Assembly (NCBI RefSeq): GCF_013705725.1
Contig: NZ_CP055481.1
Coordinates: 2,604,001 to 2,668,000, forward strand
DNA: 64,000 bases
DNA from: Klebsiella sp. RHBSTW-00484
Lineage (GTDB): Bacteria; Pseudomonadota; Gammaproteobacteria; Enterobacterales; Enterobacteriaceae
Reading direction: 5' to 3'
This document shows, piece by piece, positions 53,616 to 64,000 of this stretch. The notes under the pieces are model-generated. The model worked only from the letters and a program-made list of their open reading frames with translations, ran no database searches and was not told the origin of the DNA. The position numbers and the translations under genes were made by a program. Positions within the stretch are counted from its first letter, which is position 1, and each line of letters begins with the position of its first letter.

Positions 53616-54371
53616 ATGTCTTTTACATCCCGCTTATTGAGCGATATCCCCGGCATCCGCTACGCCTTTCTCGATGTTCATGAAACTGCCTCCTTTCCCT
53701 ACGGCGAAATGGCGCCGGTCAAGCTGGTTCACGGCAACGTCGTACATCACTATCAGGCACCGCAGGCGGAGCGACCCCACGCCGACGCGATGTTTACCGC
53801 CGTCAGGGGGCAGAAGATGGGCGTGGTGACCGCCGATTGCCTGCCGCTGCTGATGGCTTCGCGAGACGGGCGCTATATCTGTAGCGTCCACGCGGGCTGG
53901 CGCGGCGCGGCCAGCGGGATCATCGAAAATAGCCTCGCGCTGTTTCGGCGTTATCAGGTTTCTCCCGAAGAGCTGGTGGTGGTGAGCGGGCCGCATATTC
54001 ACTCATGCTGCTACGAAGTTTCGTCGGATTTTTATCAAGCGCTGCTGGCAATGCCTGCGGGCGAACTGGCAAAACGCCATCGTGAACGTATTTTTCAGCC
54101 TCATCAGACCCCGTCTGAGGGGGCTCGGGCGAAAGCGACCAGCAGCGATAATTTATGGTTTGACCTGCGGGCTTTTGCCGAACTGCTGCTGCGCAATGCG
54201 GGCGTGCCTGATGAAAATATGGAGTGGTTGGGGAGCTGCACCTACTGTACGCCGCAGTCGTTGGGGTCGTTTCGCCGCCGCACCCATACGCCGGCAGAGA
54301 AGTCGTTCCAGTATTCCTGGATCATGCGCGAGCCGGGCGATGATGAGTTGATGAGACGAAATGATGATTGA
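53616..54371 (+). CDS. PgeF/YfiH-family (DUF152, 'polyphenol oxidase') paralogue
   Basis: 251 aa from MSFTSRLLSDIPGIRYAFL. The metal triad His39 (LVHGN), Cys75 (TADCLPLL), His92 (VHAGWRG) keeps the 36- and 17-residue spacing of E. coli PgeF, and GPHIHSCCYEV is conserved. The family handles wrong-amino-acid peptidoglycan precursors (PgeF) and shows purine-nucleoside or polyphenol activities in some members. The housekeeping pgeF lies near rluD/clpB in enterobacteria, so this is probably a second copy with another role. The ribosome site is weak. Confidence 0.8.
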   Translation: MSFTSRLLSDIPGIRYAFLDVHETASFPYGEMAPVKLVHGNVVHHYQAPQAERPHADAMFTAVRGQKMGVVTADCLPLLMASRDGRYICSVHAGWRGAASGIIENSLALFRRYQVSPEELVVVSGPHIHSCCYEVSSDFYQALLAMPAGELAKRHRERIFQPHQTPSEGARAKATSSDNLWFDLRAFAELLLRNAGVPDENMEWLGSCTYCTPQSLGSFRRRTHTPAEKSFQYSWIMREPGDDELMRRNDD

Positions 54372-54434
54372 TGATGTGTAACATCGGCGGGCGTTTGCTA
54401 TCTCTGCACTCCTTCAAACAAGGAGGATTGCAAA

Positions 54435-55838
54435 ATGAAATTGAACTCGTTCGCTTTAAGTCTCGCCCCGCTGCTGGCCGCCAGCGCTTTTTCCGCTCAT
54501 GCTGGCCCGCAGGCTCATGTGGTTTGCGCTTATCACCATACGCTCGGCGATGACGCCATTATGATGTTCGGTAAGCCGAATCAGGCCATGTGGCATGACT
54601 TTTTCGGCAACACCCATACCGATGCGGTGTCTACTTACCAGACGCTGCGCGACCAGCCGGAAACTACCTGCGATAACAAAGCCGACAGCTCTGCCTACTG
54701 GGCACCGTCGATGAAGCTACCGGATGGCCAGGTGGTGACGCCTGCCTACCAGAAAACCTATTACCAGACCACCAAAGTGGAACAACATCCGCTGCATCCG
54801 TTCCCGGCAGGCCTCGAACTGCTGGCTGGCGATCACCACGGTTCGGCACCCAGTTCGCGCATCACTTTTCTGTGCGCTAACGGCAAAGGCTACAGCAACA
54901 AAGCCGGAGAGGTCTGCGGGCTGCGTAAAGCGGGTGACGCGGTACAGTTTAATATCGGTATTCAGTTCCCTAACTGCTGGGATGGCGTCAACCTGAAGCC
55001 ACATCATGGACATAGCAACGCAACCTACGACGTAAATGGTGCCTGCCCGACCGCTTATCCGGTCAAAATGCCGACGGTGAATATGAATATCGCCTATGTT
55101 CTGCCACAGATTAAATCTCTCGATACGGCGAAGGTTGAGCTGTCGATGGATCCGGTAATGAACGGTGATGTACGTGAAGAACACTGGGGTAGCATCTACT
55201 CCGCCCACGCTGATTTTATGAACGGCTGGACGGTAGACGCGGCGCACTATATGACCGAGCGCTGCATGAACAAGGGGATCGATTGCGGGAGCGCGGTGCC
55301 ATATGGTTTCACGACGGTGGAAGAGAACGCGCTGGTAGACAGTACCGAACCGACTGCTACGCATGCTGCGCCAGAAAATCTGGTGGTGAGCGATAACTGG
55401 AAGAACGGTGGTCGCACGCATAATCCGGAAACCATGACGCTGGTGAAATTCCAGATCCCGCCGCTGCCGCAGGGGCAGGACACCTCACTGTTTAAATATC
55501 AGGTGCGGATTTACGGCGGTAAAGTGGAAACCAACGGTGCGGATCAGATCTTCTTCTATCCGGCGAGCAACGACTGGAGCGCAGATAGCGTGACCTGGAA
55601 CCATCGTCCGTCCTGCAACTACAGCTCTGATGCCTCGTTATATCTGAATTCATCGCGGGAATACCGGATGGTGAACGTTGATAAAGCGGTGCGTAAGGCG
55701 CTGGCGGAAGGTAAAACCGAGATCTCCTGGTATATTGGCGGCGACCGTCAGGGCAACAGCTACCATTTCGACCCGGCTTTCGCGCAGCAGGAGCCAATGC
55801 TGATGCTGACCGGTTTTAAAACCACGCCAGAGATCTGA
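54435..55838 (+). CDS. Secreted DUF1996 protein with C-terminal carbohydrate-binding-like domain
   Basis: 467 aa; AAGGAGG precedes the ATG. Sec signal peptide with cleavage after AHA (residue 23). Residues ~35-250 fit DUF1996: ITFLCANGKGY, IQFPNCWDGVNLKPHHGHS, GACPTAYPVKMPTVNMNIAY. After a linker, residues ~335-460 resemble a DNRLRE/CBM96-like beta-sandwich (FQIPPLPQGQDTS, FFYPASNDWSADSVTWNHRP). Several cysteines suggest disulfides and an exported product. DUF1996 is best known from fungi and actinobacteria; its function is unknown. It is 63 bp after the PgeF-like gene and ends at a REP cluster. Confidence 0.75.
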   Translation: MKLNSFALSLAPLLAASAFSAHAGPQAHVVCAYHHTLGDDAIMMFGKPNQAMWHDFFGNTHTDAVSTYQTLRDQPETTCDNKADSSAYWAPSMKLPDGQVVTPAYQKTYYQTTKVEQHPLHPFPAGLELLAGDHHGSAPSSRITFLCANGKGYSNKAGEVCGLRKAGDAVQFNIGIQFPNCWDGVNLKPHHGHSNATYDVNGACPTAYPVKMPTVNMNIAYVLPQIKSLDTAKVELSMDPVMNGDVREEHWGSIYSAHADFMNGWTVDAAHYMTERCMNKGIDCGSAVPYGFTTVEENALVDSTEPTATHAAPENLVVSDNWKNGGRTHNPETMTLVKFQIPPLPQGQDTSLFKYQVRIYGGKVETNGADQIFFYPASNDWSADSVTWNHRPSCNYSSDASLYLNSSREYRMVNVDKAVRKALAEGKTEISWYIGGDRQGNSYHFDPAFAQQEPMLMLTGFKTTPEI

Positions 55839-55849
55839 TTTCGGTAGGT

Positions 55850-56056
55850 GCCGAGAAACTCCCGGAGGCGATGCTGCGCATCTGTCCGGGCTACCGCCCG
55901 CAGACGGTGATGAACCCGTAGCCCCGGTAAGGCGTCAGCCGCCACCGGGGAGATCATCCGAAGCTGCGCTGGATGTGGTTTCCCGGGTCGCGGCGTAAAC
56001 GCCTTACCCGGGCTACCGGCCCGCAGGTGCCTGTGAACCGGTAGCCCTGCTAAGCG
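55850..56056. repeat. REP cluster between DUF1996 and rhodanese genes
   Basis: Three REP-like units at about 55873-55910, 55918-55951 and 55982-56020, with cores such as CCCGGTAAGGCGTCAGCCGCC and CGTAAACGCCTTACCCGGGC in parts, alternating in direction between convergent genes. Confidence 0.7.
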
Positions 56057-56074
56057 CAGCGCGAGCGAGAAGAT

Positions 56075-57655
56075 TTACAATACCTTAAACCCGTGCGTGC
56101 CATCGCATGCCAGCTGTTCAACCAGGCCGAACTCCCAGTCGAGGTAGGCCTGCATTGCCGCAGGGGAGTTATCGGTTCCCTCATACGGACGGCGATAGCG
56201 ATCGCTACGCGGCGTCGCCAGATGCGTCTCACCATGCTCCAGCGCCAGTCCGGCGCTAATCCACGCCAGCGTCCCGCCGCTCAATAGCTGTACCGGTTTA
56301 CCGGTTAATGCCGCCACTTCCGGCACCGCGTATCTTGCCAGCAGGCTGCTGCCACAGGTGACAACGTAACGTTCAGCTGAGGGGATTGTCTCCAGTGCCT
56401 GACGCAGCTGCGCGCGCACCAGCCAGTACGCGCCGGGAATATGTCGGGCGACATAGTTGGCGCTGGTGGTGAAATCCAGCACCACGGTACCCGGCTCCCG
56501 TAGCTGTTCCGCCAGCTGCAGTGGCGAAATCTCCTCCGCCTGCGGTCCCGGAGGGACGCTGATGGCTGGGGTTCCGCGCTCGTTAAAATCATCCCGCCGC
56601 ACATCGTTTAATACCGCAACCTCCCAGCCCATCTGCGCCAGCCAGGAGGCGGTTATCGGTGCACGAATCTCATCATCGGCAACCAGCACAATCCGCGCCC
56701 CGCGCACGCTGGCGAAATGATCGGTTTCCTGTATCAGCTGCCCGCCGGGAGCGCTCACGCTCTGCGGCAGATGGCCCGCAGCGTACTCTTCCGGGCTGCG
56801 TACATCGAATAGATACGTGGTACGTTCGGGCTGCCGCTGCCAGCGCTTAACGGTGTCACTATCGATAAAAATCACCCCCGCGCGCTCGGCTAGCTGTTTC
56901 ACTTCCGCCACGCGTTCGGCTGAGGCGTGAAAATCTGTATCGTAGCGCCGCTGCTGACTATGTTCGAGTTCAAGCCCGGCTAAGGTCCAGCCGATGGTGC
57001 CGTTACGCAGCGCGTAGACCGGATTGGGCAAACCGGCGTTACGTAACGACTGGGTACCGATAATGCTGCGGGTGCGTCCCGCGCAGTTGACGATAACCGT
57101 GGTCTGCGGCGAAGGGAGCAGCCCCTCAATACGCAGCGCCAGCTCTGCGCCGGGCACGCTGATGCTGCCGGGAATATTCATAGTTTGATACTCATCGAAG
57201 CGGCGCGCGTCGACGATAACTACCTCCTGCTGACCGTTGAGCAGGTCTTTCACTTCTTCGGCGCTCAGCGAGGGCGTATGCCGCTTGCTTTCCACCAGTT
57301 CGCCGAAGGCTTTGCTCGGTGAATTGACATCCTGAAACAGCTCTCCGCCGCTGCGCTGCCAGCCTTGCAGGCCGCCTTCCAGCAGCGCAACGTCCTGATA
57401 GCCCCAGCTATGCAGACGCTCAACGGCCAGTTCCGCCAGACCTTCGCCGTTGTCATACACGGTAATCGGCGTCGTCAGGCGCGGTACGCGACGGAAAATT
57501 TCCAGCTCCAGCTTGCTCAGCGGCAGGTTAGCGGCAAACAGCGGATGATTGCGGGCGAACTCCGCCTCTTCGCGAAGGTCGACCAGCGCCAGCTCCGCGC
57601 CGTCAAGCAGCGCCTGGCGCAGCTGTGCCGCCGGGCGATAAGAGTAATCAGGCAT
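56075..57655 (-). CDS. Four-domain rhodanese (sulfurtransferase) with two active-site cysteines
   Basis: 526 aa from MPDYSYRPAAQLRQALL; an in-frame start at 57718 would extend into the dioxygenase gene. Four tandem rhodanese repeats. Active-site cysteines occur only in repeat 2 (Cys191 in IVNCAGRTRS) and repeat 4 (Cys434 in VVTCGSSLLA); repeats 1 and 3 have Asp in that loop (VYDNGEG, VADDEIRA), so they are inactive and structural. Such proteins move sulfane sulfur to cyanide or thiols. It begins one base after the thiol dioxygenase stop, so both act in one sulfur-oxidation route. Confidence 0.9.
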   Translation of the reverse strand: MPDYSYRPAAQLRQALLDGAELALVDLREEAEFARNHPLFAANLPLSKLELEIFRRVPRLTTPITVYDNGEGLAELAVERLHSWGYQDVALLEGGLQGWQRSGGELFQDVNSPSKAFGELVESKRHTPSLSAEEVKDLLNGQQEVVIVDARRFDEYQTMNIPGSISVPGAELALRIEGLLPSPQTTVIVNCAGRTRSIIGTQSLRNAGLPNPVYALRNGTIGWTLAGLELEHSQQRRYDTDFHASAERVAEVKQLAERAGVIFIDSDTVKRWQRQPERTTYLFDVRSPEEYAAGHLPQSVSAPGGQLIQETDHFASVRGARIVLVADDEIRAPITASWLAQMGWEVAVLNDVRRDDFNERGTPAISVPPGPQAEEISPLQLAEQLREPGTVVLDFTTSANYVARHIPGAYWLVRAQLRQALETIPSAERYVVTCGSSLLARYAVPEVAALTGKPVQLLSGGTLAWISAGLALEHGETHLATPRSDRYRRPYEGTDNSPAAMQAYLDWEFGLVEQLACDGTHGFKVL

Positions 57656-57656
57656 A

Positions 57657-58253
57657 TTAATTATCCTTAGAGAGATCCCAGATATTGGGTAAGTGGCGAT
57701 TGGAGTAGCCGGAAACAAACGGTTTAACGAGGCCTTCCTCGGTATAAACCGCGCGCCTGACGCCGCCGATATTGCCGCCGTAGACGTGAATGCTGATAGA
57801 GACGCTGTCCGTCAGCGCGTTGCTTACCCGGTGAATGTCGCCGTCGCGGGAAGAGACCTTTTCCACCTCGCCAGGGGAGAGGCGTTCGGCAAGGCCGCTA
57901 ACTACCGGCTGACCGTGCTGGTCCAGGCGGTAGCGCTGATTCTCCTCCGCGCCGCGCAGCATACCGATGGCTCCCCACACCCGGTGATCGTGAATCGGCG
58001 TCGATTGCCCCGGCCCCCAGACGAAACTCACAATGGAAAAACGCTGCCCGGAGTCGGCGTGCAGCAGATACTGCTGATAGTGGTGGGGATGCGGCAGCGT
58101 GTACTCCTCCGGCAGCCAGTCATCTTTTTTCACCAGCGTCGCCAGACGACGGGCTACGGCATCCAGCAGGGCGGGCTCATCGGTAAAATCGCGATGCAGG
58201 GCATCAACGTCTTGAATAAACTGGCGTAATTTTTCCACTCGCGGTGCGGTCAT
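57657..58253 (-). CDS. Gln-type thiol dioxygenase, probable 3-mercaptopropionate dioxygenase
   Basis: 198 aa cupin enzyme. Fe ligands: His88 and His90 (STPIHDHRVWG) and His141 (GDIHRVSN). The position that is Arg60 in cysteine dioxygenases is Gln here (YQQYLLHADSGQRFS), the mark of 3-mercaptopropionate-type dioxygenases; the C-terminal SGYSNRHLPNIWDLSK resembles, from memory, the Pseudomonas aeruginosa enzyme. It would oxidise a thiol acid to the sulfinate with O2. A database label of cysteine dioxygenase is the main alternative. Divergent from the LysR gene; the rhodanese gene follows at once. Confidence 0.82.
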   Translation of the reverse strand: MTAPRVEKLRQFIQDVDALHRDFTDEPALLDAVARRLATLVKKDDWLPEEYTLPHPHHYQQYLLHADSGQRFSIVSFVWGPGQSTPIHDHRVWGAIGMLRGAEENQRYRLDQHGQPVVSGLAERLSPGEVEKVSSRDGDIHRVSNALTDSVSISIHVYGGNIGGVRRAVYTEEGLVKPFVSGYSNRHLPNIWDLSKDN

Positions 58254-58323
58254 GATCGCTTCCTGTTGTCGGGACTGGTCTTTACGCTAGCAAAGGCGTT
58301 AATATAATTAAAATGCAATTTCC

Positions 58324-58339
58324 GCATATATTAATATGC
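58324..58339. promoter_or_regulatory. Candidate LysR operator, copy 1
   Basis: GCATAT-ATTA-ATATGC, a 6-bp inverted repeat with a 4-nt spacer in AT-rich DNA, 71-86 bp upstream of the thiol dioxygenase start. A related palindrome lies on the other side of the LysR gene. Confidence 0.55.
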
Positions 58340-58354
58340 AAAAATCACATTGAT

Positions 58355-58496
58355 AGCCTACCCATCAAGCGTCATTGGCGCAGGCAGTTTGAACACGGAC
58401 AGCGCGGAAGAACCGGAGCGTACACGTAGTACGTGAGGGATCTGAGCACTGCCCAGGTTCAAAATGGCAAGCAAAATAGCTCTGATGGGCCAGGCT
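58355..58496. repeat. 142-bp ERIC-like palindromic element in the LysR leader
   Basis: The ends AGCCTACCCATCA (58355-58367) and TGATGGGCCAGGCT (58483-58496) are inverted repeats; inner arms TTTGAAC and GTTCAAA also pair, and the centre reads GGAGCGTACACGTAGTACGTGA, recalling the ERIC core in parts. The element ends one base before the TAAGGA ribosome site of the LysR gene. Confidence 0.7.
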
Positions 58497-58507
58497 TTAA
58501 GGATTCT

Positions 58508-59401
58508 ATGCGCATCGACGACATTGACGCTCTGCTGGCCACCGTGCAGTTTTCCTCCCTGAATCAGGCCGCAGAATATCTTGGTATTACCCAATCGGCG
58601 ATTACCCGCCGCCTCCAGCGTCTGGAGCAAACCCTGAACGTGACGCTGCTGGAGCGCCAGACCCGACCGCTTACCCTGACCGCTGCCGGGCACCGGGTTT
58701 ACGAGCAATGTCTGAGTATCAAGCGGGAAACTAAAAAACTGTATGGCCTGCTCGACCCTGAGGCTGAGCCGCACGGCATCCTGCGTCTCGGGGTGCCGCA
58801 AAGCGTGGCGGAAATTGCGCTGCAACCGGCGCTGGCCGCGTTGCGCCAGCAGTTTCCCGCCCTGCAACCACAGGTCACCTGCGGCTGGAGCGGGCTGTTG
58901 CAAAGGCGGCTGGAGAGCGTCGAACTGGATGGGGTGCTGGCGATGGGGCCTGAGCAACTGAGCTTTGCTGACGGCTACAGCGGGCGGCTGCTTTGCCCGC
59001 TGGATATCGTGGTGATTGCGGCGAAAAGCTGGCGTCTGCACGCCGGAGCGCTGCGGGACTGCGCGGAGAAAGGCTGGGTGCTGAATCCCGACGGTTGCGG
59101 CCTGCGGGCGGGGCTGATCCGCGAGCTGCAATCGCAGGGGCTGCGGTTAGCGCTGAATGTGGAAACCGCCGGTGCCCAGTTGCAAATAAGCCTGGTGGCT
59201 CAGGGGCTGGGACTGGGCCTGGTACCGCGCGCTGCGCTGGCCGTCAGCCCTTGGCGCGATGAAGTGACGGTGCTGACGCTTGAGGATTTTCAGCCCGAGG
59301 TACATCTGTGGTTGGTTAACGCGCAAAATCTGGCTAATCTGAGCCAACCGCTGACTTTTTTTGCCGCTAAGGTCGTTCAGCAACTTAATGTATCTGTATG
59401 A
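58508..59401 (+). CDS. LysR-family regulator of the organosulfur module
   Basis: 297 aa from MRIDDIDALLATVQFSSLNQAA with TAAGGA upstream. Winged HTH: LNQAAEYLGITQSAITRRLQRLEQTLNVTLLERQTRPLTLT in overlapping parts. Then the two-lobe effector domain with LRLGVPQSVAE. It lies between the divergent dioxygenase/rhodanese operon and the downstream monooxygenase/ABC operon, with the same CATAT-N4-ATATG palindrome on both sides, so it probably controls both in response to an organosulfur compound or its derivative. Confidence 0.88.
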   Translation: MRIDDIDALLATVQFSSLNQAAEYLGITQSAITRRLQRLEQTLNVTLLERQTRPLTLTAAGHRVYEQCLSIKRETKKLYGLLDPEAEPHGILRLGVPQSVAEIALQPALAALRQQFPALQPQVTCGWSGLLQRRLESVELDGVLAMGPEQLSFADGYSGRLLCPLDIVVIAAKSWRLHAGALRDCAEKGWVLNPDGCGLRAGLIRELQSQGLRLALNVETAGAQLQISLVAQGLGLGLVPRAALAVSPWRDEVTVLTLEDFQPEVHLWLVNAQNLANLSQPLTFFAAKVVQQLNVSV

Positions 59402-59433
59402 AAAATATATGCAATTTTTTAAATGCTTATATC

Positions 59434-59448
59434 GCATATTAAGATATG
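59434..59448. promoter_or_regulatory. Candidate LysR operator, copy 2
   Basis: CATAT (59435-59439), TAAG, ATATG (59444-59448), preceded by G as in copy 1. It is ~98-111 bp upstream of the flavin monooxygenase start, in an AT-rich island that also holds ATATGC and ATGCAT half-motifs. Confidence 0.55.
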
Positions 59449-59545
59449 ATAAAAATGCATTTTGTTCATTAAGAGCCTGTGTATAGGGTAATGAAAACGC
59501 GCCGCCGCTGCGGCCCATTCGTTATCCTGATACAAGGAGTTCTGT

Positions 59546-60631
59546 ATGAGCATTCAGTTTCTCGGCATGATCGGTCATCGCCTGTCGTCGGAAACCATCG
59601 CCCCGGTTGGCCCGATTTTTGACCGCGATTACATCGTGCGCTTTGCGCAAACCCACGAGGCTGCCGGGTTCGACCGCCTGCTGGTGGGCCACTGGTCCGA
59701 TCAACCCGATGGATTTCTGGTGACCGCGCTGGCCGGGCTGTCGACGCAAAACATCAGCTTCCTGCTGGCGCATCGCCCCGGTTTTGTCTCGCCAACTCTT
59801 GCGGCGCGTAAATTCGCTACCCTTGAACACCTGCTGGGTGGACGCCTGGCAGTGCATATCATCAGCGGCGGTAATGATGCTGAGCAGCGCCGCGACGGTG
59901 ACTATCTCGATCATGACCAGCGCTATGCCCGTACCGATGCCTTCCTCGACACCCTCCGCAAGGTCTGGACCGCCGAACAACCGGTGGATATCGCCAATGA
60001 TTTTTATCAGGCGGAACAGGCCTGGTCGGCGATCCGCCCGCTGCAAAAGCCGCATATCCCCTTATATTTCGGCGGCTCGTCGGAAGCGGCCATTGCCGTG
60101 GCCGGAAAGCACGCCAACATTTTCGCCCTGTGGGGAGAGTCGCTGGCGCAAACCGATGAAACCATCCGGCGCGTGCGGGCCGAGGCGGCGAAACATCAGC
60201 GTGAGATTGGCTTCAGCGTCTCTTTCCGCCCGATTATCGCCGACACCGAAGCCGAAGCCTGGGAAAAAGCCGAGCATATTCTGCACGTCGCCACCGAACG
60301 CGCGGCGCAGACTGAAGGCGGTTTCAAAGCCAAGCCCGATAGCGTCGGCGCGCAGCGCCTGCGGGCGACGGCGGCGCAGGGCAAGGTGGTGGATAAGCGC
60401 CTGTGGACTGGGATCGCCCAACTGGTCGGCGGCGGTCACAACTCCACCGCGCTGGTGGGCACGCCAGAACAGGTTGCCGACGCGCTGCTCGACTACTACG
60501 ACCTTGGGGTGCGCAACTTCCTGATCCGCGGATTCGATCCGCTCAACGATGCGCAGGAGTACGGGAAAGCGCTGCTGCCGATAACCCGTGAAAAAGCCGC
60601 CTTACGCTCCGTTGCGGAGCGCGCATCGTGA
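59546..60631 (+). CDS. LLM-class FMNH2-dependent monooxygenase, SsuD-like
   Basis: 361 aa TIM-barrel luciferase-like monooxygenase. SsuD-type motifs: WSDQPDGFLVTALAGLSTQ, LLAHRPGFVSPTLAARKFATLEHLLGGR in parts, VHIISGGNDAEQRRDGDYLDHDQRYARTDAF in parts, FGGSSEAAIAVAGKHANIFALWGE. Such enzymes cleave C-S bonds of sulfonates to give sulfite and aldehyde. AAGGAG upstream. It overlaps the next gene by 4 bp. A reductase supplying FMNH2 is not in the window. Confidence 0.88.
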   Translation: MSIQFLGMIGHRLSSETIAPVGPIFDRDYIVRFAQTHEAAGFDRLLVGHWSDQPDGFLVTALAGLSTQNISFLLAHRPGFVSPTLAARKFATLEHLLGGRLAVHIISGGNDAEQRRDGDYLDHDQRYARTDAFLDTLRKVWTAEQPVDIANDFYQAEQAWSAIRPLQKPHIPLYFGGSSEAAIAVAGKHANIFALWGESLAQTDETIRRVRAEAAKHQREIGFSVSFRPIIADTEAEAWEKAEHILHVATERAAQTEGGFKAKPDSVGAQRLRATAAQGKVVDKRLWTGIAQLVGGGHNSTALVGTPEQVADALLDYYDLGVRNFLIRGFDPLNDAQEYGKALLPITREKAALRSVAERAS

Positions 60632-61773
60632 CCGATTCCGCATTCGATGATTGGTCGCGGCGGCTGACGGAGATCCGCCAACTGATGGCAGAGCAGGCGG
60701 CCAGCCTCGACGCCAGCGGTGAATTTCCTCACCACAATATCGAACGTTTACGCCAGCGCGGCTTTTTAAGCCTTGCCGTGCCGCGACAACATGGCGGGGC
60801 GGGAGCCGATTTAGCGCGTCTTCAGCAGGCTATCGCCGCCATTGCCTGGGGTGAACCGGCGACGGCGCTGATCGTCTGCATGCAGTACCTGCATCACCTA
60901 CGGCTGGCGGAAAATGAAAACTGGGCCGAGCCGCTGCGCCAGCAGGTTTTTCAGGATGCCGTTGAACGAGGCGGGTTGATTAATAGCCTGCGCGTGGAGC
61001 CGGAGCTGGGATCTCCGGCGCGCGGCGGTCTGCCGAAAACCGTGGCGAGCCGCAGCGCGGAGGGCTGGCGAATTAGCGGCCACAAAATCTATACCACCGG
61101 CATCGAAGGCCTGAGCTGGCTGGCACTCTGGGGTCGCAGTGACGACAGTACGCCGCTGGTCGGTACCTGGCTGGTACCCCGCGATAGTGACGGCATCACC
61201 GTGGTGAAAAGCTGGGATCACGCCGGAATGCGGGCAACTGGCAGTCATGAAGTCATTCTGAAAAATGTGCAGGTGTCTGCAGAGAATGCGGTGGACGTAT
61301 GGCCTGTCGATGCGCCCCCCGCGCCGGATGCCGAACAGTTTCGCCTGTTTGCTAACCGCCATACGGCGCTGCTGGCGGCGATTTACGACAGCGTCGCCCG
61401 CGCCGCCCGCGACTGGCTGGTGGCATGGCTGAGTGCGCGTATTCCGGGAAACCTCGGGCAGCCTCTTTCCAGCCTGCCGCGAGTGCAGGAAAAGGTCGGG
61501 CAGATTGACGGCTTACTGCTGGTGAATCGCAACCTGCTGGAGAAGGCCGCGGAGCTGGGCTTTTCCGCCATCGAGGCGAATCTGGCAAAAGTCACCATTA
61601 CCGATAACGCCATTCAGGCGGTGAACCTGGCGCTTGAGCTGACCGGCAATCATGGTCTGAGTCGGCAAAACCCTCTGGAACGCCACTATCGCAACGTGCT
61701 GTGCGGGCGGGTACATACCCCGCAGAACGACAGCGCGTGGTTGGCGGCAGGCAAATACGCTTTTCAAAAATAA
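60628..61773 (+). CDS. Acyl-CoA-dehydrogenase-fold flavoenzyme, SfnB/DszC-like
   Basis: 381 aa with N-terminal helical, central beta (VASRSAEGWRISGHKIYTTGIEGLSWLALW in parts) and C-terminal helical domains of the ACAD fold. No clear catalytic Glu of true acyl-CoA dehydrogenases was identified. Relatives in sulfur-starvation operons (SfnB, DszC-like) act on sulfones, sulfoxides or thiol compounds with flavin. Placed between an SsuD-like enzyme (4-bp overlap) and ABC binding proteins (11 bp), it is more likely a sulfur-compound monooxygenase than a fatty-acid enzyme. Confidence 0.8.
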   Translation: MTDSAFDDWSRRLTEIRQLMAEQAASLDASGEFPHHNIERLRQRGFLSLAVPRQHGGAGADLARLQQAIAAIAWGEPATALIVCMQYLHHLRLAENENWAEPLRQQVFQDAVERGGLINSLRVEPELGSPARGGLPKTVASRSAEGWRISGHKIYTTGIEGLSWLALWGRSDDSTPLVGTWLVPRDSDGITVVKSWDHAGMRATGSHEVILKNVQVSAENAVDVWPVDAPPAPDAEQFRLFANRHTALLAAIYDSVARAARDWLVAWLSARIPGNLGQPLSSLPRVQEKVGQIDGLLLVNRNLLEKAAELGFSAIEANLAKVTITDNAIQAVNLALELTGNHGLSRQNPLERHYRNVLCGRVHTPQNDSAWLAAGKYAFQK

Positions 61774-61784
61774 GGATAATTCAT

Positions 61785-62759
61785 ATGCGCATACCCAAAT
61801 TCACCCGTTTAGCCGGGGCGGTGATGCTGTTGGCCCTGAGCGGCTATGCGGCGGCTCAGGAGCGAATCACTCTACGCATCGCCGATCAAAAAGGCGGCAT
61901 GCGTTCGCAGCTGGAAGCCGCCAACGCGCTGCAAAATCTCTCGTACGACATTAAGTGGGCCGAGTTTCCGGCCGCTGCGCCGCTGGCGGAAGCGCTGAAC
62001 GCCGGTGCGGTGGACGTGGGGATTATCGGCGATGCGCCGCTGCTGTTCGCGCTGGCTAACGGTGCGCCGGTCAAAGCCATCGCCGTCGATAAAAGTAATC
62101 CGGCGGGGACCGCTGTGCTGGTCTCTCCCGGCAGCCCGCTGAAAAGCGCGGCGGATTTAAAAGGCAAGCGTATCGCCACCGGTAAAGGGTCGATTGGTCA
62201 TTTCGTGGCGCTGAAAGCGCTGGAGCAGTCGGGCATTTCAGCCAAAGAGGTGCAGTGGGTGTTTCTCGGGCCGGTGGACGCCAAAGTGGCGCTGCTTAAC
62301 GGCTCGGTAGATGCCTGGGCGACCTGGGAGCCGTACACCACTCAGCTGGTCAAGACCGACGAGGGGCAGATTCTGGTGAGCGGCAAAGGGCTGCTGCCGG
62401 GCAACACTTTCCTCGCCGCCACCGATGATGCGCTGAAAGATCCGCAAAAACGCGCGGCGCTACAAGATTATCTCAATCGCCTGGCCGGGGCCGAGCGCTG
62501 GGCCTACGCCAACCTTGATAGCTACGGTAAAACGCTGGGGGAAATTATCCGCTTCCCGGCGGATATCGCCCGCGCGCAGTTTGCCAATCGTCAGTCGCAG
62601 TGGCTGCGCCTGGATTCGCAAACGGTCGCCCAGCAGCAGTCTACGGCGGATTTCTACCTCGCTAACGGCCTGATCCGCGCAAAGCTCGACGTCACGCCGA
62701 CATTTGATAACGGTTTTAGCGTGCCTGCCGCGCAGGCTCATGCGGAGGTCGCGCCATGA
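61785..62759 (+). CDS. ABC substrate-binding protein, SsuA-like (Sec-exported)
   Basis: 324 aa from MRIPKFTRLAGAVMLLALSG, AAGGATAA upstream; the frame is open earlier but overlaps the flavoenzyme gene. Sec signal cleaved after about Ala24 (YAAA). SsuA/NMT1-type fold: FPAAAPLAEALNAGAVDVGIIGDAPLLFALANGAPVKAIAV in parts, and GPVDAKVALLNGSVDAWATWEPY. Delivers sulfonates or related compounds to the ABC permease. Its stop overlaps the next start by four bases. Confidence 0.88.
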   Translation: MRIPKFTRLAGAVMLLALSGYAAAQERITLRIADQKGGMRSQLEAANALQNLSYDIKWAEFPAAAPLAEALNAGAVDVGIIGDAPLLFALANGAPVKAIAVDKSNPAGTAVLVSPGSPLKSAADLKGKRIATGKGSIGHFVALKALEQSGISAKEVQWVFLGPVDAKVALLNGSVDAWATWEPYTTQLVKTDEGQILVSGKGLLPGNTFLAATDDALKDPQKRAALQDYLNRLAGAERWAYANLDSYGKTLGEIIRFPADIARAQFANRQSQWLRLDSQTVAQQQSTADFYLANGLIRAKLDVTPTFDNGFSVPAAQAHAEVAP

Positions 62760-63793
62760 TGCATTCCGGTTTTTCCCGCCGTCGCTTCTTACAATTAACC
62801 GGCGGCGTGGCGCTGGCGGGGGCATCCCTGCCGTTATGGGCTCACGATATGGCGGCGATGGCGAGCAGCGACGAGCATCCGGCGCTGCGCCTGGCACAGC
62901 CGTACAAAATCAAACTGGCGATAAACAAAAGCGCGGTGTGCCTTGCCCCGGTTGCCGTCGCGGAGCAGCAGAAGATTTTCAGTAAATACAATCTCGACGT
63001 TGAGTTTGTTAACTTCGGCAACTCAACGGACGTGCTGCTGGAGGCGATTGCCACCGGCAAGGCCGATGCCGGGGTTGGCATGGCGCTGCGCTGGCTGAAG
63101 GCGCTGGAACAGGGCTTCGACGTCAAGTTGACCGCCGGAACCCACGGCGGCTGTCTGAACCTGCTGACGGCGAAAAACTCGCCGTTTGGCGGCCTGGAGA
63201 GCTTAAAAGGGCAAACTATCGGCGTTACCGACATGGCCGGGCCGGACAAAAACTTCTTCGCCATTTTACTCAAGCGCCACGGCATCGACCCAATAAGCGA
63301 CGTGCAGTGGAAAGTCTATCCCGCCGATCTGCTCAGCGTCGCGCTGGATAAACGCGAAATCGCTGCCATTAGCGGCAGCGAACCGTTTAGCTATCGCCTG
63401 CTGGAAACCGGTAAATATCAGCTTATCGCCAGCAATATGACCGGCGATTACGCCAATCTGAGCTGCTGCGTGCTGGGCGTCAGCGGTACCCTGGCGCGAG
63501 ATCACAAACCCGCCGCCGCCGCGCTCACTCAGGCGATTCTTGAAGCGCACAGCTACGCCGCTGAACACCCGGAAAGCGTGGCGCAATCCTTCCTGGCCCA
63601 TGCGCTCAATACCAATGAAGCGGAGGTTAGCGGGATCCTTCACGGGCAGGGGCACGGTCATCATGCGGTGGGCGAGGCGTTTGTCAAAGAGCTGACGCAG
63701 TATGCGGTGGATCTTCAGCGGGTGCAGGTGATCAAACCGGGGACCGATCCTCATCAGTTTGCGGAGAGTATTTATGTCAACGTTTTCGCCTGA
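62756..63793 (+). CDS. Second ABC substrate-binding protein, Tat-exported
   Basis: 345 aa. Twin-arginine signal SRRRFLQ (residues 7-13) followed by a hydrophobic stretch and a cleavage site after about Ala29. NMT1/SsuA-like periplasmic fold: VAVAEQQKIFSKYNLDVEFVNFG, LEAIATGKADAGVGMALRWLK, GQTIGVTDMAGPDKNFF. A His-rich stretch HGQGHGHHAVG lies at about residues 296-306. Tat export implies folding, or cofactor/metal loading, in the cytoplasm, unlike its Sec-exported neighbour. Overlaps the permease gene by 20 bp. Confidence 0.85.
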   Translation: MMHSGFSRRRFLQLTGGVALAGASLPLWAHDMAAMASSDEHPALRLAQPYKIKLAINKSAVCLAPVAVAEQQKIFSKYNLDVEFVNFGNSTDVLLEAIATGKADAGVGMALRWLKALEQGFDVKLTAGTHGGCLNLLTAKNSPFGGLESLKGQTIGVTDMAGPDKNFFAILLKRHGIDPISDVQWKVYPADLLSVALDKREIAAISGSEPFSYRLLETGKYQLIASNMTGDYANLSCCVLGVSGTLARDHKPAAAALTQAILEAHSYAAEHPESVAQSFLAHALNTNEAEVSGILHGQGHGHHAVGEAFVKELTQYAVDLQRVQVIKPGTDPHQFAESIYVNVFA

Positions 63794-64000
63794 ACGGGTT
63801 CTGTCGCGCCCGACCCGCGGCAGGCCGCTGTGGAATGAAGGCCTGCTGGCTGGCGTATTGTGGCTGCTGGGCGGCTTTTTTACTCTCGCCTGGCCGGATG
63901 TCGGGCGGCGCTGGCCGTTTAGCGAAGGTTGGGCGCTGGCTCAGTTCAGCGTCGGCGGGGGACTACTGCTGCTGGCGCTGAGCTACCGCTACTGGCGGCA
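63774..64000 (+). CDS. ABC transporter permease, N-terminal part (runs off window)
   Basis: The first 75 codons of a membrane protein: a short polar start, then two hydrophobic segments (GLLAGVLWLLGGFFTLAWP and VGGGLLLLALSYRYW). It starts 20 bp inside the preceding binding-protein gene. Position suggests the SsuC-type permease of this importer; the conserved permease loop is beyond the edge, so this rests on context. Confidence 0.7.
   Translation, partial: MSTFSPERVLSRPTRGRPLWNEGLLAGVLWLLGGFFTLAWPDVGRRWPFSEGWALAQFSVGGGLLLLALSYRYWR

What the first reader, a model, noticed from the sequence alone, without database searches (positions are those of the whole stretch)
56075..64000. Organosulfur scavenging module combining thiol dioxygenase, rhodanese, two flavoenzymes and a dual-binding-protein ABC importer
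One LysR gene sits between a thiol dioxygenase/rhodanese pair and an operon of SsuD-like monooxygenase, SfnB-like flavoenzyme, Sec-type and Tat-type binding proteins and a permease. This joins uptake, C-S cleavage and thiol/sulfane oxidation in one locus. From memory, Pseudomonas aeruginosa has a similar order around PA2594-PA2603. In an enterobacterium this would be a little-described route for 3-mercaptopropionate, a sulfone or a sulfonate.
Basis: partly seen in the sequence, partly recalled or inferred. Interest (0 to 1): 0.72.

Follow-up and report, generated by a model that had tools for sequence, protein, structure and literature searches.

The report
Klebsiella organosulfur scavenging locus, shared operator
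A compact Klebsiella gene set that seems to import an unknown sulfur-containing acid and break it down with oxygen-using enzymes, apparently switched by one regulator through two matching DNA sites; it suggests a setting for an enzyme (3-mercaptopropionate dioxygenase) whose role in such bacteria is poorly understood.

Summary
The genes are there as described: a 3-mercaptopropionate-type thiol dioxygenase (3MDO) and four-domain rhodanese (minus strand), a LysR gene, then a plus-strand operon of two flavin-monooxygenase-like proteins, Sec- and Tat-type binding proteins and a permease that runs off the window; an ATPase follows outside. The organism is a Klebsiella near K. huaxiensis. The nine-gene order is the same in 13 of 13 Klebsiella/Raoultella/Enterobacter-named/Serratia rubidaea loci. 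3MDO is rare in Enterobacterales (7 of 394 genomes). New here: both operons carry the same 30-bp bipartite site in the same orientation, the only two copies in 6.9 Mb. In 27 Pseudomonas-type genomes, where the genes are often apart, the core lies before the same genes: 41 of 44 sites, and 18 of 21 not beside 3MDO; but only 23 of 48 Pseudomonas/Azomonas loci show the core. So import, flavin enzymes and 3MDO/rhodanese are very probably one regulon. The SsuD-like protein is not a canonical sulfonatase: its subfamily lacks both arginines that MsuD needs. The ACAD-like protein passes neither the SfnB nor the 3-sulfinopropionyl-CoA desulfinase cut-off. Substrate and step order are unproven; best guess is thiol to sulfinate to sulfonate to sulfite under sulfate limitation.

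The parts
56075..57655 (-). Four-domain rhodanese; predicted active cysteines in domains 2 (NCAGRTRS) and 4 (TCGSSLLA), no Cys at the matching places of domains 1 and 3
   Evidence: both Cys in 96 of 96 rows, window counted twice
57657..58253 (-). 3-mercaptopropionate dioxygenase (3MDO) type thiol dioxygenase
58310..58339 (-). Operator copy 1, GCATATTAATATATGCGGAAATTGCATTTT, 56 bp before the 3MDO start, same orientation as the 3MDO-rhodanese operon
58508..59401 (+). LysR-type regulator
   Evidence: start chosen because relatives without the 58358-58507 insert begin here
59434..59463 (+). Operator copy 2, GCATATTAAGATATGATAAAAATGCATTTT, 82 bp before the FMO start
59546..60631 (+). FMO: group C (SsuD/MsuD-fold) reduced-flavin monooxygenase of a distinct subfamily
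60628..61773 (+). ACAD: acyl-CoA-dehydrogenase-fold protein, probably a group D flavin monooxygenase; GTG start overlaps the FMO stop
61785..62759 (+). SBP1: SsuA-family periplasmic binding protein (Sec-type signal by eye)
62756..63793 (+). SBP2: NMT1-like binding protein with twin-arginine signal (by eye)
63774..64000 (+). ABC permease, cut by the window end (continues to 64769; ATPase follows at 64763-65551)

Best explanation
This is one sulfur-scavenging regulon. A LysR protein binds a bipartite site (GCATATTAnnATATGm plus AAAwTGCATTTT) before both operons and switches them together. An SsuABC-like importer with two binding proteins takes up a small acidic organosulfur compound. Two monooxygenases fed with reduced FMN by a reductase encoded elsewhere (an SsuE is present), together with 3MDO and the rhodanese, oxidise it and free its sulfur for cysteine synthesis. 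Most likely chemistry (inferred): 3MDO makes 3-sulfinopropionate from 3-mercaptopropionate or a compound that yields it; the ACAD-fold enzyme oxidises the sulfinate to the sulfonate, as MsuC does for methanesulfinate; the FMO splits the C-S bond and releases sulfite plus malonate semialdehyde; the rhodanese handles sulfite or sulfane sulfur. Shown by computation: gene content, conserved linkage, shared sites, residue signatures. Inferred: LysR as the binder, sulfur limitation as the signal, the substrate, the order of steps, the rhodanese role.
For: Same nine-gene order in 13 of 13 Klebsiella/Raoultella/Enterobacter-named/S. rubidaea loci. The 30-bp site occurs exactly twice in the own genome at up to 3 mismatches, backwards-pattern control 0. 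In the window and 13 relatives it lies before both operons: copy 2 in 14 of 14, copy 1 in 13 of 14 at up to 1 mismatch. In 27 genomes (26 named Pseudomonas, one Pantoea sp. Ap-967) 41 of 44 core sites lie within 400 bp of a start of 3MDO, SBP1, FMO or ACAD, and 18 of the 21 sites not at 3MDO do so; backwards control 2 sites. In P. wayambapalatensis the two exact sites lie 0.9 Mb apart, before 3MDO and before an FMO. 3MDO sits in one gene run with FMO in Erwinia L070 and with ACAD in Ralstonia L021. Nine 3MDO residues kept in 102 of 102 rows. SsuE over cut-off. P. aeruginosa PA2594 and PA2598 fall with sulfur-assimilation genes (PMC8466066, passages); PA2594 rises with sulfate-starvation proteins (PMC7760384, passages).
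Against: The FMO subfamily lacks the two arginines that MsuD needs for methanesulfonate, which speaks against sulfonate cleavage of the known kind. No sequence evidence fixes the substrate. Only 23 of 48 Pseudomonas/Azomonas 3MDO loci show a core site at up to 1 mismatch in the DNA held, and P. protegens has the LysR ortholog but no such site in its genome. The 27 genomes were picked mostly because their 3MDO showed the motif, so sites at 3MDO are partly circular. In P. aeruginosa another LysR protein, BsrA, is listed with PA2602 as a direct target, peak at -74 (PMC8407307, passage), and GliR also has a peak there (PMC8151288, passage). A P. aeruginosa sulfur-starvation paper names no PA259x or PA260x gene in its main text (PMC12581299). 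In 3 of 20 sampled Pseudomonadaceae loci 3MDO has none of the other eight genes nearby.
Confidence: 0.55

Rival explanations
1. Reverse order: the ACAD-fold and FMO enzymes act first on a thioether, sulfoxide or sulfone acid (for example 3-methylthiopropionate or thiodipropionate), as CmoO and CmoJ do for S-alkylcysteine, and release 3-mercaptopropionate or its sulfenate, which 3MDO then oxidises.
For: FMO lacks the sulfonate arginines yet keeps the fold and the Trp that stacks on FMN in MsuD; two invariant new arginines, R228 and R328, could bind a carboxylate; CmoO/CmoJ precedent (PMC10863075, abstract and first of three parts of the text).
Against: The binding protein family is that of sulfonates; the step that would finally free inorganic sulfur from 3-sulfinopropionate is then missing from the locus.
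Confidence: 0.25
2. A CoA route as in Advenella: 3MDO makes 3-sulfinopropionate, a CoA transferase activates it, and the ACAD-fold protein is a 3-sulfinopropionyl-CoA desulfinase; the FMO serves another substrate.
For: Advenella has LysR, CoA transferase, Acd and Mdo side by side (PMC5373536, passages); NF042439 is the second-best NCBIfam match; ACAD directly precedes 3MDO in Ralstonia L021.
Confidence: 0.1
3. Two independent jobs under one switch: importer plus FMO/ACAD scavenge an unrelated sulfonate or sulfone, while 3MDO-rhodanese removes thiols or sulfane sulfur that build up during sulfur stress.
For: 3MDO-rhodanese is paired with changing partners: FMO in Erwinia, ACAD in Ralstonia, a canonical SsuD-type protein in Azomonas. 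A 3mdo mutant of P. protegens makes more 3-mercaptopropionate, so the thiol is made by cells (PMC12947264, abstract and passages).
Against: Repeated joining of 3MDO to the same flavin-enzyme families, even by unlinked shared sites, fits a shared pathway better.
Confidence: 0.25

Closest known systems
P. aeruginosa PA2594-PA2603 region (3MDO = PA2602) and relatives
   Same: In 10 of 10 close relatives rhodanese-3MDO is divergent from LysR, and in 9 of 10 FMO and SBP genes follow with an exact core site before the FMO; a table assigns one ChIP peak to the promoters of PA2601 (LysR) and PA2602 (PMC8151288, passage)
   Different: Several relatives carry a second FMO and further SBPs, and none showed SBP2; P. 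aeruginosa itself was not fetched; no listed paper treats the region as one pathway (searches; lists of 51 and 94 were capped)
msu/sfn pathway (SfnG, MsuC, MsuD) for dimethylsulfone and methanesulfonate
   Same: reduced-flavin monooxygenases used for sulfur assimilation (PMC8234197, passages); group C plus group D enzymes (PMC13352529, passages)
   Different: FMO lacks MsuD R225 and R296 and the SfnG-type residues; no reductase among the nine genes; a thiol dioxygenase is added
Advenella mimigardefordensis mdo/acd cluster
   Same: LysR, ACAD-fold protein and Mdo together (PMC5373536, passages)
   Different: Advenella has a CoA transferase and TctC-type receptors and was grown on these compounds as carbon source; the ACAD here fails the desulfinase cut-off
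Mercaptosuccinate dioxygenase clusters (msdo) of Variovorax and Advenella
   Same: thiol dioxygenase and rhodanese-domain protein together, with LysR in Advenella (PMC5373536, passages)
   Different: different dioxygenase subfamily (8vni only E 8.6e-9) and no flavin monooxygenases named in the passages
ssuEADCB alkanesulfonate system
   Same: SsuA-family SBP, SsuC/SsuB-like permease and ATPase (below their cut-offs), SsuD-fold enzyme
   Different: an SsuD-like gene with the canonical residues exists elsewhere in this genome (G000:C1:1311637); this FMO is a separate subfamily

Membership tests
3-mercaptopropionate dioxygenase | CDO-family cupin, nearest to solved 3MDO | tested here: met
   PF05995 32.1 bits over 23; 3uss/4tlf E 1.2e-77
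3-mercaptopropionate dioxygenase | Q62, three His ligands, Gly95 instead of crosslink Cys, S155-H157-Y159, R168 (PaMDO numbering; roles recalled) | tested here: met
   identical in 102 of 102 rows, the window counted twice
3-mercaptopropionate dioxygenase | oxidises 3-mercaptopropionate | not testable with these tools
   needs an assay
SsuD/MsuD alkanesulfonate monooxygenase | over the curated cut-off | tested here: not met
   231.8 against 510 and 230.3 against 518.2 bits
SsuD/MsuD alkanesulfonate monooxygenase | sulfonate-binding motif W195, R225, R296 (RGG loop) | tested here: not met
   Trp kept, R225 is Ser, residue aligned with R296 never Arg in 50 of 50 subfamily rows (window included); both canonical rows keep all; motif from PMC8234197
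SsuD/MsuD alkanesulfonate monooxygenase | fold | tested here: met
SfnG dimethylsulfone monooxygenase | over the curated cut-off | tested here: not met
   153 against 383 bits; true SfnG L212-L214 differ at the pocket
SfnB family (TIGR04022) | over the curated cut-off | tested here: not met
   120 against 431 bits
3-sulfinopropionyl-CoA desulfinase (NF042439) | over the curated cut-off | tested here: not met
   101 against 600 bits; no protein of the 8 genomes searched is over it
Group D (ACAD-fold) flavin monooxygenase | loss of the ACAD catalytic Glu | tested here: met
   The Glu column is Thr364 in the window and Thr (49) or Met (1) in 50 ortholog rows, one of them the window again, with His363 beside it in all; of 19 other ACAD rows 11 have Glu, 4 Ala, 4 did not align. 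Glu loss alone does not prove an oxygenase
Group D (ACAD-fold) flavin monooxygenase | structure closest to a monooxygenase | tested here: inconclusive
SsuA-family binding protein | over the curated cut-off | tested here: met
   SBP1 205.5 against 163.5 bits; SBP2 80.5, not met
LysR-type regulator acting on both operons | binds the shared site | not testable with these tools
   only motif and linkage evidence

The most novel reading that the evidence does not exclude
A complete oxidative desulfurisation route for a C3 thiol acid: 3MDO (thiol to sulfinate), ACAD-fold oxygenase (sulfinate to sulfonate) and a new group C subclass that reads its substrate with relocated arginines (R228, R328) and frees sulfite, all under one LysR regulon shared by Klebsiella and Pseudomonas, giving 3MDO its physiological role.
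Probability: 0.27. Interest if true: 0.68.

Novelty: new variant of a known kind. Interest (0 to 1): 0.5.

Why it matters
3MDO has several solved structures, but a 2026 paper still says that limited information is available on bacterial 3-mercaptopropionate metabolism (PMC12947264, passage). A regulon that ties it to a sulfonate-type importer and two flavin oxygenases makes its role testable with single deletions. It would also define a C-S cleaving subfamily that scores weakly on alkanesulfonate monooxygenase models but lacks their pocket, and a scavenging trait whose site is found in 18 of 20 Klebsiella species.

Tried and rejected
Considered and dropped: FMO as plain SsuD (cut-off and motif not met); FMO as SfnG; ACAD as SfnB or as 3-sulfinopropionyl-CoA desulfinase; locus as Klebsiella-specific novelty (related gene sets in Pseudomonas, Ralstonia, Erwinia). 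Led nowhere: Rfam scan of 54000-64000, no match; fold ranking could not separate monooxygenase from dehydrogenase for the ACAD; P. aeruginosa itself was not among 298 sampled family members, best 3MDO identity 85%; Tralau 2007 and Tchesnokov 2015 are not held; Paraburkholderia L059/L065 have a LysR relative but only a partial look-alike of the site, by eye. Sites without explanation: three core sites in the Pseudomonas-type genomes, all with 1 mismatch, matched none of the nine genes, and their neighbours were not read; nine 1-mismatch sites away from the locus in the Klebsiella and Serratia genomes, of which I read three by eye and saw no sulfur gene, one of them beside housekeeping genes.

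Mended on rechecking: the ACAD catalytic Glu aligns with Thr364, not with His363; the R296 column was printed one residue off and is now counted properly; the earlier look for the core in betaproteobacteria covered only DNA just before 3MDO, which in Ralstonia lies inside ACAD, so the whole loci were scanned (0 of 13). Some subfamily rows (Ralstonia, Burkholderia, P. wayambapalatensis) have an Arg three residues after the R296 position, so a shifted Arg is possible there. My estimate for co-regulation went from 0.9 to 0.85 because only 23 of 48 Pseudomonas/Azomonas loci hold the core.
Full report
WHAT IS THERE. The window is bases 2604001-2668000 of contig 1 of a 6.94-Mb genome. The ACAD protein is 98-99% identical to proteins named Klebsiella huaxiensis. 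Reading from 56075: rhodanese (-), 3MDO-type thiol dioxygenase (-), LysR (+), FMO (+), ACAD-fold protein (+), SBP1 (+), SBP2 (+), permease (+, cut at 64000), and outside the window an ATPase. The plus-strand genes overlap or nearly abut: FMO/ACAD overlap 4 bases, ACAD-SBP1 gap 11, SBP1/SBP2 overlap 4, SBP2/permease overlap 20, permease/ATPase overlap 7. Rhodanese begins one base after the 3MDO stop if its ATG is used. An IS5-family transposase lies 40 bases behind the ATPase (365.8 bits, cut-off 140).

CONSERVATION. A scan of one genome per species with the 3MDO protein kept the best 80 of at least 578 relatives. Among the 19 loci with enterobacterial names, the 13 from Klebsiella (6), Raoultella (4), 'Enterobacter' (2) and Serratia rubidaea (1) have all nine genes in the same order; the other six (3 Erwinia, 3 Pantoea) do not. 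Rhodanese follows 3MDO in 79 of 80 loci; in the eightieth (L045) the held DNA ends. In an even draw of 394 Enterobacterales genomes 3MDO (E 1e-40 or better) is found in 7, the own genome included, from 6 of 114 genera. In a draw of 298 Pseudomonadaceae it is found in 74. A tree of 77 of the 102 3MDO rows puts the 13 Klebsiella/Raoultella/Enterobacter-named/S. rubidaea rows on one branch (100/99), apart from five Erwinia/Pantoea rows, which lie in an unresolved fork with the Pseudomonas rows; the root is by midpoint, so direction of transfer is not shown.

THE SHARED OPERATOR. Aligning the two spacers across the window and 13 relatives showed one conserved block in each. Read in the direction of each operon they are GCATATTAATATATGCGGAAATTGCATTTT (3MDO) and GCATATTAAGATATGATAAAAATGCATTTT (FMO): 25 of 30 identical, against a best of 21 in 200 shuffled pairs. 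In the own genome the joint pattern at up to 3 mismatches occurs twice, at these two places, with none for the backwards pattern. The pattern was derived from these sites, so the finding is its uniqueness and conservation. Copy 2 is present in 14 of 14 loci and copy 1 in 13 of 14 at up to 1 mismatch; S. rubidaea copy 1 has 5 mismatches. In 20 Klebsiella genomes the 16-base core occurs without mismatch in 18, in both copies in 16; the 34 such sites are 16 pairs about 1 kb apart plus two singles, with no backwards-pattern hits (flanking genes not read one by one). At up to 1 mismatch the own genome has five further core sites elsewhere, against 2 for the backwards pattern.

INDEPENDENT TEST IN PSEUDOMONAS. 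In P. wayambapalatensis the only two exact core sites lie before 3MDO and, 0.9 Mb away, before an FMO relative. Extending to 27 genomes (26 named Pseudomonas and one Pantoea sp. Ap-967), picked mostly because their 3MDO showed a look-alike, gave 44 sites at up to 1 mismatch in 26 genomes, against 2 for the backwards pattern. Of the 44, 41 lie within 400 bp upstream of 3MDO, SBP1 (60% or more identical), FMO or ACAD. Twenty-three are at 3MDO, which is partly circular. Of the other 21, 18 are at SBP1, ACAD or FMO (7 of them shared with a divergent LysR) and 3 at none. The LysR protein has one match at E 1e-30 or better in each of 8 Pseudomonas genomes and none in one Cupriavidus and one Ralstonia genome; none of 13 betaproteobacterial loci holds a core site at up to 1 mismatch. 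Against this, only 23 of 48 Pseudomonas/Azomonas loci hold one, and P. protegens has the LysR but no such site. So the regulon is well supported in Klebsiella and part of Pseudomonas, and LysR as its binder is an inference.

RELATION TO P. AERUGINOSA. In ten genomes whose 3MDO is 80-85% identical to that of P. aeruginosa, all have rhodanese-3MDO divergent from LysR; nine continue with FMO and SBP, with an exact core site before the FMO; four of the ten carry ACAD (60-63%) and the FMO ortholog at 70-71% (20 regions read, 17 with rhodanese). P. aeruginosa has an ACAD relative at 57% (P0089). Literature seen: one ChIP peak of GliR is assigned to the promoters of PA2601 (LysR) and PA2602 (3MDO) (PMC8151288, passage), and BsrA, another LysR, is listed with PA2602 as a direct target (PMC8407307, passage), so more than the neighbouring LysR may act there. 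PA2594 (sulfonate binding protein) and PA2598 (called methanesulfonate monooxygenase) fall in a PA2504 mutant in which 30 of 42 changed transcripts are sulfur-related (PMC8466066, passages). PA2594 protein rises with sulfate-starvation proteins in a bfd mutant (PMC7760384, passages). Orthology of PA2594 and PA2598 to genes here is inferred from order and name, not tested.

CHANGING PARTNERS. 3MDO-rhodanese forms one tight gene run with FMO and an SBP in Erwinia L070, with ACAD in Ralstonia L021, and with an SBP, a canonical SsuD-type protein and an amidohydrolase-like protein in Azomonas L069 (the last name is by eye). This supports a common purpose with flavin C-S chemistry but also allows two separate jobs under one switch.

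MECHANISM AND CONFIDENCE. Co-regulation of both operons: about 0.85. Role in sulfur scavenging: about 0.8, from SBP and FMO families and the P. aeruginosa reports. Thiol to sulfinate to sulfonate to sulfite as drawn in the main model: about 0.3; flavin enzymes before 3MDO: about 0.25. A reductase is not among the nine genes, but an SsuE over its cut-off is in the genome.

LITERATURE LIMITS. Nine text searches bore on this locus or its enzymes and one on Klebsiella sulfonate use had no hit. None of the papers listed was seen to describe this gene set as one pathway, in Klebsiella or Pseudomonas; the lists (20 of 1,181; 15 of 79) were capped, and only passages of a few papers were read. Subscription papers are mostly not held.

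Noticed in passing
window 58358-58507: About 150-bp insert between operator copy 1 and LysR, also in K. michiganensis L005 and K. indica L006; the other 11 relatives lack it, L012 and L013 having a shorter spacer. Its 23-base word matches only own-genome loci, L005 and L006; a stretch 85% alike lies at hemE in the listed records of 298 E. coli genomes with a match (of 5426; 5 listed). A small mobile or repeat element.
   Followed up: partly
L002:2593-3609 (window numbering 65592-66608, outside the window): IS5-family transposase 40 bases behind the ATPase gene.
   Followed up: partly
window 54435-55838: Protein with DUF1996 plus CBM96 domains next to the locus, unexpected company to my eye.
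   Followed up: no
P. aeruginosa PA2602 (literature): Frameshift-type insertions in PA2602 are listed for several isolates of long-term evolved quorum-sensing populations (PMC8863103, passage).
   Followed up: no
L069:6969-12183: Azomonas operon with SBP, canonical SsuD-type enzyme, amidohydrolase-like protein (by eye), 3MDO and rhodanese.
   Followed up: partly
L057:1-2940: Proteins that look by eye like a TctABC tripartite carboxylate transporter beside ACAD and FMO; the Advenella mdo cluster also has TctC receptors.
   Followed up: no
L037, L038, L047, L051, L052, L064: A Pseudomonas subgroup with LysR next to 3MDO but a variant such as GCATAATAAA, or no GCATA word, instead of the core site.
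   Followed up: no
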